A DNA stretch of 64,000 bases from Elusimicrobium sp. An273 (GTDB lineage: Bacteria; Elusimicrobiota; Elusimicrobia; Elusimicrobiales; Elusimicrobiaceae), in contig NZ_NFJD01000001.1 in the NCBI RefSeq assembly GCF_002159705.1, forward strand, positions 124,001 to 188,000. The letters are read 5' to 3'. Of the stretch, positions 41,687 through 43,901 are shown piece by piece (the stretch's first letter is position 1; each line of letters opens with the position of its first letter). The notes beneath the pieces are model-generated. The model did no database searches. It was given only the letters and a program-made list of their open reading frames with translations, and had not been told where the DNA came from. The translations under genes were made by a program, and so were the position numbers.

Positions 41687-43135
41687 ATGGAACAAACAGC
41701 CGTAAAAACGAAACAACCCACCGGGCTTTGGCTCCTGTTTATGACCGAGCTCTGGGAACGCTTCAGCTACTATGCCATGCGCAGTATCCTGATTTTGTAT
41801 ATGGTGTATCTGCTCGGGATGGACAAGAGCGGCGCTTCCAACGTATACGGAACGTTTACCAGTTTGGTTTATCTTTCCACTTTGCTGGGCGGTTTCTTAG
41901 CCGACCGATACCTGGGCCAAAAATGGGCCACCATTTGGGGCGGACTGATGATTGCGGGCGGGATGTTCATCATGAGCGTGCCCACCGTGGCTTTCCTCTA
42001 TATCGCCATGGGGCTCATTATTTTGGGGAACGGTTTTTTCAAACCCAATGTGGTGGCCATTGTCGGGCAGTTATATGAAAAGAACGACGCCCGGCGCGAC
42101 GGCGGATTTACGATTTTTTACATGAGCGTCAACATCGGCGCCTTCTTCGGGCCGCTGCTGGTGGGCCATTTGGCGGCAGGGGGCAACTATAAAGCGGCCT
42201 TCTGGATTGCCGGGGCCGGAATGGTGATTGGCCTGTTTACCTTTATTTTGGGATACAAAAAATTCCTCTTGGGCAAAGGGGCCGCTCCCAAAGACAAACC
42301 GACTTTCTACAAAGACCCCGCCCTCTGGGCCATCGTGCTGGCCATTCCGATGGTCGTTTTGTATATGCAGGGGCATCACACCGCTTCTTACATTTCCTTT
42401 GCGGTGCTGGCCGCTGCCTACTATATGTACAACAAAAAGGTCAACCGGGTAAAAACCGAAAACACCGCCCCGCTGACCCGGCAGGAAAAACAGCAGATCG
42501 CCGTAATCGGCATTTTGGCGTTTTTCAGCATTTTCTTCTGGGCCGCGTTTGAACAGGCGGGGGCGGCGCTGAACCTGTTTGCCTACGAATATACCGACCG
42601 CGTCATCTCCTTCTTTGGCCACAGCTGGGAAATTCCGGCCAACTGGTTTCAAAGCTTAAACCCGCTGTACGTGGTCATTTTTGCGCCGTTGTTTTCCAAA
42701 TTATGGATTGAACTGGCCAAAAAAGGCATAGAACCCTCCACTCCGGCCAAGTTTATGGTGTCGCTGTGGCTGATTGCCTTGGCTTTTGGCGTAATGCTGC
42801 TGGGCGCGTTTGCACTGGTGGGAAATGCCAAAATCAGCTTGTTCTATTTGGCGTTTACGTACCTGTTCCAGACGTTTGCCGAACTGTGCATTTCGCCGGT
42901 GGGCAAATCCATGGTTACCAAACTGGCGCCGGCGCGGTTTGTATCGCTGCTGATTGGGGTGTGGTACTTGTCCAACGCGGTAGCCAACAAATTGGCGGGG
43001 GTGTACTCCGGCTATTTCCAGCGCATCAGCAACGAACAGTTCTTCCTGTGGCTGGTGATTGTGCCGCTGGCGGTATCCGGGCTTTTGCTGGTGTTTTTAA
43101 AACCCATCAAAAAATGGATGCACGGCGTACACTAA
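41687..43135 (+). CDS. POT family proton-dependent oligopeptide transporter
   Basis: 482 residues, about 14 membrane helices. The family signature near the N-terminus is visible: MTELWERFSYYAMRSILILYMVYLL (ExxERFxYY proton-binding motif), then STLLGGFLADRYLGQKWATIWGG and the second signature FTIFYMSVNIGAFFGPLLVGHLA (FYxxINxGA). It imports di- and tripeptides with protons, as in DtpT. AAGGAGG lies before the ATG. It is a single gene with its own terminator. It fits an organism living on amino acids and peptides. Confidence 0.95.
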   Translation: MEQTAVKTKQPTGLWLLFMTELWERFSYYAMRSILILYMVYLLGMDKSGASNVYGTFTSLVYLSTLLGGFLADRYLGQKWATIWGGLMIAGGMFIMSVPTVAFLYIAMGLIILGNGFFKPNVVAIVGQLYEKNDARRDGGFTIFYMSVNIGAFFGPLLVGHLAAGGNYKAAFWIAGAGMVIGLFTFILGYKKFLLGKGAAPKDKPTFYKDPALWAIVLAIPMVVLYMQGHHTASYISFAVLAAAYYMYNKKVNRVKTENTAPLTRQEKQQIAVIGILAFFSIFFWAAFEQAGAALNLFAYEYTDRVISFFGHSWEIPANWFQSLNPLYVVIFAPLFSKLWIELAKKGIEPSTPAKFMVSLWLIALAFGVMLLGAFALVGNAKISLFYLAFTYLFQTFAELCISPVGKSMVTKLAPARFVSLLIGVWYLSNAVANKLAGVYSGYFQRISNEQFFLWLVIVPLAVSGLLLVFLKPIKKWMHGVH

Positions 43136-43179: not shown

Positions 43180-43213
43180 ATTTAGCGATACTAAATAAAC
43201 GAGTGTGGATTTC

Positions 43214-43756
43214 TTAATTAATTGGGAATTTCCCAATACTGTATAGAGCTGGTTCCGCCCGTACTGGCCCCGCCAAAACTGGCACATACATCTCTCCAGC
43301 GACCGGCCGTAGCCCGCATAAGGTTTTCTTCTGGTCTAAATAGAATTGAAATTCCACCGTGGATCCTACTGGCCCGCCATCCGGAAGATAAATGTGAATC
43401 CTTTTTTGCCAAGCATTCAAATCTACTGTCCAGTCTCCATTGCACGTATAGCGCCCGCGCCCGCCTTGCGCTTCATAAGAAATGCTTTTAAACTCACAAT
43501 CGGCCACTTGTGTGTCCAATTCTTCCATATACGGGCTGTATTTGCCGTTGGCCATATAATACAGTTTTTCGGCTTGGATAAGCGGGGCGGCCCACGTCAT
43601 CACTTGGGTGAGGCGCGACTTGTCTACCACGCGCTGGTACTGCGGTACAGCAATGGCCGCCAAAATACCGATAATTAATACCACTACTAAGAGCTCTATA
43701 AGCGTAAATCCGGCGTTTTTACCGTCAGAGAAGGATTTTTGATAAATTTTTGCCAT
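43214..43756 (-). CDS. Type IV pilin-like / PulG pseudopilin with candidate phase-variable promoter
   Basis: 180 residues from the ATG at 43756. The leader is longer than usual: MAKIYQKSFSDGKNAG before the PilD site G|FTLIELLVVVLIIGIL, with Glu5 of the mature chain. AAIAVPQYQRVVDKSRLTQVMTW continues the stem. The globular part has Cys in VADCEFKSI, GRYTCNGDW and KTLCGLRPV. There is no ribosome site. The promoter fits a leaderless mRNA: TAAATT lies six bases before the ATG. The -35/-10 spacer contains T13, and a perfect inverted repeat covers the -10 and codons 3-6. Expression may switch by slippage. Confidence 0.88.
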   Translation of the reverse strand: MAKIYQKSFSDGKNAGFTLIELLVVVLIIGILAAIAVPQYQRVVDKSRLTQVMTWAAPLIQAEKLYYMANGKYSPYMEELDTQVADCEFKSISYEAQGGRGRYTCNGDWTVDLNAWQKRIHIYLPDGGPVGSTVEFQFYLDQKKTLCGLRPVAGEMYVPVLAGPVRAEPALYSIGKFPIN

Positions 43757-43770
43757 ACGCAAAATTTATC
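43741..43770. repeat. Perfect 10-bp inverted repeat over the pilin -10 and start codon
   Basis: GATAAATTTT (43741-43750) and AAAATTTATC (43761-43770) flank a 10-base centre that holds the pilin ATG. One arm contains the -10 hexamer and the other codons 3-6. It looks like an operator for a dimeric regulator. Confidence 0.6.
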
Positions 43771-43790
43771 AAAAAAAAAAAAAGAGTCAA
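43763..43790 (-). promoter_or_regulatory. Pilin promoter with T13 spacer
   Basis: On the minus strand TTGACT (43790-43785), a 16-base spacer made of C, thirteen T and GA, then TAAATT (43768-43763), then six bases to the ATG. The homopolymer is the longest in the window and sets the spacing between the two promoter boxes. Confidence 0.6.
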
Positions 43791-43901
43791 GGGGCGAGCC
43801 GCCCCTCCCTGCTCTAGGCCCGTTCATCCGATTGGTTTAGGCCACACTGTTTCCGTACTGTTGCACTCTTTTCCACATTTCATTTATTCCAAATTCACAC
43901 A

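What the first reader, a model, noticed from the sequence alone, without database searches (positions are those of the whole stretch)
43754..43790. Pilin promoter whose -35/-10 spacer is a T13 tract: candidate phase variation
On the minus strand TTGACT and TAAATT are 16 bases apart, and 13 of the 16 are T. Loss or gain of one T by slippage would change the spacer to 15 or 17, which strongly alters promoter strength. Many bacteria phase-vary surface structures by such tracts in promoter spacers, for example fimbriae of Haemophilus and Neisseria adhesins. Here the target is a surface pilin, it is the longest homopolymer in the window, and it sits only in this promoter.
Basis: partly seen in the sequence, partly recalled or inferred. 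Interest (0 to 1): 0.72.

Follow-up and report, generated by a model that had tools for sequence, protein, structure and literature searches.

The report
T-tract promoter of scattered pilin genes
The run of T bases is the spacer of a promoter that a family of gut bacteria uses over and over for its many surface-pilus genes; its length drifts between close relatives, so it could tune or switch single pilins, but switching inside a population is not shown.

Summary
The motif is real: minus strand TTGACT (43790-43785), C, T13 (43783-43771), GA, TAAATT (43768-43763), 16-bp spacing, then ATG at 43756 of a type IV pilin gene. It is not unique. All 9 T-runs of 10 or more in this 1.5-Mb genome lie in pilin promoters, and the pattern occurs in 35 of 198 phylum genomes, 33 of them in the window's family. 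Most copies have a G before T12, also 16 bp. The window's T13 keeps that spacing, so it looks like a G-to-T substitution, not slippage. The tract is nevertheless unstable: in 4 of the 6 closest ortholog pairs the spacing differs (12/16, 12/17, 17/15, 19/14), although 86 of 132 leaderless copies keep 16. Unexpected extras: a 30-bp palindrome over -10 and start codon, a probable leaderless start, and chromosomal slots whose pilin differs between species (37 of 48 pairs with both flanks shared are under 30% identical).

The parts
43785..43790 (-). -35 hexamer TTGACT; other copies have TTGATT, TTGACG, TTGCAT, TTGTAT and the like
43771..43783 (-). T13 tract filling the promoter spacer (commonest form elsewhere: G followed by T12, same total length)
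43763..43771 (-). extended -10, TGA-TAAATT
   Evidence: inferred promoter element, start site not mapped
43741..43770 (-). 30-bp palindrome GATAAATTTT...AAAATTTATC spanning the -10 and the start codon; T and A bases on either side extend it
43214..43756 (-). type IV pilin gene (N-methylation motif), no Shine-Dalgarno seen, predicted leaderless; its last ~36 codons are in a different frame from the ortholog in G024
43793..43869 (-). dispersed ~75-bp element upstream of several T-tract pilins, sometimes in tandem
43789..43807 (-). G+C-rich stem-loop before the T-tract, terminator-like; shared by some but not all T-tract pilin promoters of this genome
43954..44466 (-). rplI (ribosomal protein L9; name recalled from the sequence) with a terminator-like site at 43930-43909; upstream neighbour that defines the slot
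41687..43135 (+). convergent peptide-transporter-like gene (name recalled, no family search run), downstream neighbour of the slot

Best explanation
The T-tract is the spacer of a dedicated pilin promoter of the window's bacterial family (Elusimicrobiaceae by the titles of related records). The promoter is TTGnnn, a short linker that mostly ends in G or A, about T12, then TGATAnAnT, and it stands before many scattered type IV pilin genes. In the window's class the first base of the mRNA is probably the A of ATG (leaderless), and a 30-bp palindrome covers the -10 and start codon, where a regulator could bind. T12, giving 16 bp between -35 and -10, is the commonest length. The tract slips, so single pilin genes drift to 10-20 bp spacing and are presumably weakened or tuned one by one while the genes stay open. 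Shown: the repeated promoter, its place before pilins wherever I looked, the dominant spacing, the length changes between close relatives, the palindrome. Inferred: start site, effect of length on strength, regulator. The window copy itself has the commonest spacing.
For: All 9 T-runs of 10+ in the genome are in pilin promoters; in the nearest relative, G024, 25 of 26 are and the last was not examined. 13 of 50 pilin genes of this genome, found by Pfam and not by the motif, carry the strict motif. Pattern in 35 of 198 phylum genomes, with no match of the reversed control pattern in any. Spacing 16 in 86 of 132 leaderless copies from seven genomes. ATG at the same distance from the -10 in 134 of 149 places. 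Ortholog pairs with changed tracts in near-identical surroundings.
Against: No transcription start, RNA or reporter data. G007 alone gives 46 of the 132 copies with 39 at spacing 16, and this uniformity may be recent copying rather than selection. If the true start were upstream, the palindrome would be an RNA hairpin holding the ATG (it folds well as RNA, -14.8 kcal/mol, z -5.25). Copies were found with motif-based patterns, so conservation of the matched bases is partly imposed. In one search the genes behind the matches were not examined. One promoter-like locus, L266, has no clear pilin.
Confidence: 0.72

Rival explanations
1. High-frequency reversible phase variation: within one population the tracts of many pilin genes slip back and forth, so each cell shows its own set of pilins, as described for the vlp genes of Mycoplasma hyorhinis.
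For: Similar architecture to vlp: a homopolymer in the promoter region of every member of a surface-protein family (PMC10502178, passage seen). Tract lengths from T7 to T13 among paralogs of G000 and up to T15 in G012 and G016. Fast length change between orthologs. Open genes behind unusual spacers.
Against: One length dominates; in G007 39 of 46 copies have spacing 16. Two of the six closest ortholog pairs have the same length. The window copy has the commonest spacing. No within-species data. The extended -10 may blunt the effect.
Confidence: 0.33
2. Structural spacer: the T-tract is kept only because its DNA shape or flexibility makes a good spacer for an extended -10 promoter; length changes are tolerated noise without consequence.
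For: TG before the -10; strong mode at one length; four tracts clearly broken by other bases keep 17-18 bp (G000:C3:111126, G012:C8:58183, G012:C9:33674, G024:C1:186850). The other three that the script called broken have 16, 17 and 20 and are ambiguous.
Against: 23 of 132 copies lie outside 15-18 bp (20 at 14 or less, 3 at 19-20), which would normally matter; four broken tracts are too few for a test.
Confidence: 0.3
3. Recombination arm: promoter, leader and N-terminal codons are a shared homology block through which pilin genes are exchanged between slots; the uniform T12 reflects this copying rather than selection on transcription.
For: 37 of 48 pairs with both flanks shared have pilins under 30% identical in the variable region; at the rplI slot rplI DNA is 92-94% identical between the window and five relatives while their pilins are 18-24% identical to the window's.
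Against: Does not explain why the block is a promoter found at pilins, nor leadered pilins that share T12 without that leader. Loss of different members of old tandem arrays could mimic replacement; one relative, L191, has two T-tract pilins in a row at this slot.
Confidence: 0.2
4. Intrinsic terminator: the stem-loop at 43807-43789 plus the T-run ends transcripts from rplI.
For: Terminator-like hit; the stem recurs before some other T-tract pilins of this genome.
Against: A better terminator-like site, 9 pairs with 7 G-C, lies closer to rplI at 43930-43909; several T12 pilin promoters of this genome lack the stem, such as C2:206585 and C3:111681; the scan finds about as many in shuffles (2 against 1.5).
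Confidence: 0.03

Closest known systems
vlp surface lipoprotein genes of Mycoplasma hyorhinis
   Same: [quoted passage not shown] the original papers recalled, not read)
   Different: There the tract is of adenines and ON/OFF switching was tied to its changes; here T12 is the clear norm, the genes are scattered type IV pilins, and switching is untested
sabA promoter T-tract of Helicobacter pylori
   Same: T-tract whose length tunes promoter output like a rheostat (PMC4081817, abstract and other passages seen)
   Different: The sabA tract is adjacent to the -35 and acts on the alignment with UP-like elements; here it fills the spacer
Fimbriae (hif) of Haemophilus influenzae
   Different: Dinucleotide repeat between two divergent genes (recalled), not a homopolymer in a dispersed family
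Type IV pilins (PilA/PilE)
   Same: N-methylation motif and cleavage site
   Different: 50 genes with this motif in one 1.5-Mb genome

Membership tests
Phase-variable homopolymer promoters (vlp type) | Homopolymer within the promoter | tested here: met
Phase-variable homopolymer promoters (vlp type) | Shared by many genes for surface proteins | tested here: met
   13 of 50 pilins of this genome; relatives
Phase-variable homopolymer promoters (vlp type) | Tract length differs between relatives | tested here: met
   4 of 6 closest ortholog pairs; rplI slot
Phase-variable homopolymer promoters (vlp type) | Mixed lengths within a population, linked to ON and OFF | not testable with these tools
   one genome per species, no reads, no expression data
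Type IV pilin | Prepilin cleavage and N-methylation motif | tested here: met
   PF07963 35.8 bits against cut-off 21.2; TIGR02532 32.4 against 16.3
Type IV pilin | Assembles into a pilus | not testable with these tools
   needs an experiment
Sigma-70 extended -10 promoter | TGn-TAnnnT with a -35 at 15-19 bp | tested here: met
   window copy; but 21 of 132 paralogous copies lie outside 15-19 bp
Sigma-70 extended -10 promoter | Mapped transcription start | not testable with these tools
   needs RNA 5' end mapping
Intrinsic terminator | G+C-rich stem before the T-run, kept across the copies | tested here: not met
   stem absent upstream of several T12 pilin promoters

The most novel reading that the evidence does not exclude
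Elusimicrobiaceae carry a genome-wide bank of interchangeable pilin genes plugged into fixed chromosomal slots, each behind one standard promoter whose T12 spacer can slip and whose start codon lies inside an operator-like palindrome hidden in the disposable prepilin leader. Slippage sets each pilin's level one by one, and recombination through the shared promoter-leader block changes which pilin sits in a slot: two layers of surface variation in a little-studied gut phylum.
Probability: 0.4. Interest if true: 0.78.

Novelty: new variant of a known kind. Interest (0 to 1): 0.58.

Why it matters
If true, a phylum with few cultures has a surface-variation system that combines length-variable promoters with exchange of whole pilin genes at fixed sites; among the genomes that carry it, the pattern occurs from 1 to 60 times per genome. 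It would be directly testable by reading tract lengths in cultures and gut metagenomes, and might explain why these small genomes hold so many pilins.

Tried and rejected
Unique feature of one gene: rejected, the promoter is repeated through the genome and the family. Slippage at the window copy: not needed, the spacing equals the commonest one and the nearest relative has the same length at the same locus. Terminator: disfavoured. Pure coding constraint for the palindrome: disfavoured, because synonymous codons are almost absent in codons 3-7 (AAG 2 of 233, TAC 0 of 120, CAG 1 of 125) but common further on in the same genes (199 of 940, 196 of 1124, 245 of 603), and because six leadered copies keep a form of it outside the coding sequence; recent copying could also explain the codon bias. 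Base-pair covariation inside the palindrome: weak and mixed; of four inner pairs tested one exceeded within-genome shuffles (53 against 39.6, P 0.0008), two did not and one never varies; of the six leadered copies three are only bulged, not symmetric. Link between tract length and gene decay: none seen. Taxon name of a supposed isolate: name not found. Genome paper of Elusimicrobium minutum: not held, so what it says about pilins was not read.

Full report
What is there. On the minus strand the sequence reads TTGACT, C, T13, GA, TAAATT, TTGCGT, ATG, with the hexamers 16 bases apart. T13 is the longest homopolymer of the window; the next are 8. The gene behind it is a type IV pilin by its N-methylation motif; by sequence it resembles pilins of solved structure over roughly residues 17-80. 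It lies between rplI, which is followed by a terminator-like site, and a convergent gene.

It is a repeated promoter. The genome (G000, 1.5 Mb) has 50 genes with the N-methyl motif. I read 150 bases upstream of the motif in all 50: 13 carry TTGAYT, a spacer and GATAMAY. In these 13 the hexamer spacing is 16 in six, 12 in three, and 11, 14, 15 and 17 in one each. Every run of ten or more T on either strand of G000 (9 runs) lies in a pilin promoter (one search compared). In the nearest relative, G024, there are 26 such runs; 25 are before pilins, one of them (L303) with a decayed start region, and one was not examined. A first-order Markov model would predict about 92 such runs in a genome of this size, so long homopolymers seem to be avoided except here. 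Variants with TACANT stand mostly before pilins that have a leader and a Shine-Dalgarno sequence: of 20 loci fetched (two of them the same place), all but L266, where no clear gene was found, lead to pilin genes; in L269 and L280 I read the pilin motif by eye. In 198 genomes drawn across the phylum the pattern with ten or more T occurs in 35: 27 of 37 of the window's genus, 6 of 10 of another genus of the same family, and single hits in 2 genomes of a distant genus; the reversed control pattern had no match in any. The genes behind those matches were not read in that call. The stricter leaderless pattern matched 5 of 5 genomes chosen for it and 9 of 26 others of the genus.

The tract in this copy. 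Most paralogs and the G024 gene at the same locus have CG-T12 or a shorter tract where the window has C-T13; the G024 spacing is the same, 16. The simplest account is a G-to-T substitution. So this copy is not a length variant.

Length in the family. From the stretches fetched I took 266 motif hits on both strands; 117 were dropped because they had no TTG at 9-22 bases with a T-rich spacer (in the printed part mostly mirror images of the palindrome; the print was cut), leaving 149, of which 132 are leaderless pilins, from G007 (46), G016 (20), G012 (18), G021 (16), G024 (14), G000 (13) and G008 (5). Spacing: 16 in 86, 17 in 12, 15 in 10, 12 in 7, 14 in 6, 13 in 4, and 10, 11, 18, 19 or 20 in 7. 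Without G007 it is 16 in 47 of 86. Genes behind short spacers are as long as the others: of the 20 with spacing 14 or less, one has a frame of 110 residues and 19 have 166 or more. Caution: these copies were gathered with motif patterns, which imposes some of the conservation.

Length between orthologs. Of 45 pairs with at least 60% identity in the variable region, the six best (94-100%, identity times coverage) are all between genomes; four differ in spacing (12/16, 12/17, 17/15, 19/14) and two agree (16/16). Two of the six were matched on one flank only. For one pair 66 of 66 bases upstream and 149 of 150 downstream agree while the spacing differs by five bases. The tract is a mutation hot spot. 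At the rplI slot, 41 related loci were read: six carry a leaderless T-tract pilin, with spacings 15, 16, 16, 13, 17 and 14; four more carry another pilin, two of these (L211, L220) behind a T-tract with TATAGT; in the remaining 31 no pilin motif was seen in the stretch read, some of which are cut short by contig ends.

Promoter type and start. The -10 has a TG extension. The ATG stands 12 bases from the first base of the -10 in 134 of 149 places; one each has it at 11 and 13, and 13 have none there. In the window copy no Shine-Dalgarno fits before it, so a leaderless start is likely. This is inference; no start site was mapped.

A palindrome over the start codon. GATAAATTTT...AAAATTTATC spans 30 bp with the ATG in its middle. 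In 131 leaderless copies the 15 outer pairs match in 118-130. Synonymous codons are nearly absent in the right arm but common in the rest of the same genes. Searching eight genomes for the two arms at 9-13 bases found 9 sites in G000, 11 in G024, 31 in G016 and 36 in G013, none in the other four, and none for the reversed control; all listed sites are exactly 30 bp, but the list was cut. The 9 of G000 are pilin promoters, and 15 further G016 sites that I fetched all precede open pilin frames. Six leadered pilins (in G005, G045, G013 and three in G016) keep it outside the coding region, three nearly perfect and three with a bulge. A regulator's binding site is my preferred reading; a hairpin in RNA that starts further upstream is not excluded.

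Slots with changing pilins. Comparing flanks and pilins between genomes, 48 pairs share both flanks (at least 250 aligned bases at 70% identity on each side); in 37 the variable regions are under 30% identical or show no BLAST match at 0.001, and in 11 they are 38-97%. At the rplI slot rplI DNA is 92-94% identical between the window and five relatives while the pilins are 18-24% identical to the window's beyond residue 45; the sixth, G024, has 99% and 71%. Replacement by recombination is the plain reading; loss of different members of tandem arrays is an alternative (L191 has two T-tract pilins in a row at this slot), and some flank windows may include a neighbouring pilin.

Verdict. Phase variation is plausible by analogy with the vlp genes (PMC10502178, passage) and the sabA rheostat (PMC4081817, passages), but remains untested. 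My searches for earlier reports showed in their listings no title or abstract start about this promoter; the library lacks most subscription journals and listings were capped, so this is weak evidence of novelty.

Noticed in passing
window 43213-43330, minus strand: The last ~36 codons of the window's pilin are in a different frame from the ortholog in G024 (L188); the other frame continues the ortholog's C-terminus. Assembly error or a real broken end.
   Followed up: partly
window 43793-43869: A ~75-bp element upstream of the promoter is repeated before several T-tract pilins of G000 and G024 and sometimes stands in tandem.
   Followed up: no
G024:C1:417889, G024:C6:324, G021:C6:296137, G007:C1:48331, G007:C22:19113: Pilins with frameshifts in the leader or a lost ATG behind T-tract promoters.
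   Followed up: no
leadered copies such as L270, L273, L278, L284: Their 5' leaders share GTTGATT...AATCAAC-like stretches before the Shine-Dalgarno, a possible RNA stem (seen by eye).
   Followed up: no
G000 contigs: 46 of the 50 N-methyl genes lie on the minus strand of their contigs; in G024 22 of 26 long T-runs are also on one strand.
   Followed up: no
window genome: Size and G+C content resemble the chicken-caecum isolate An273, listed as Elusimicrobium minutum with 94% 16S similarity (PMC6069880, passages); identity not verified.
   Followed up: partly
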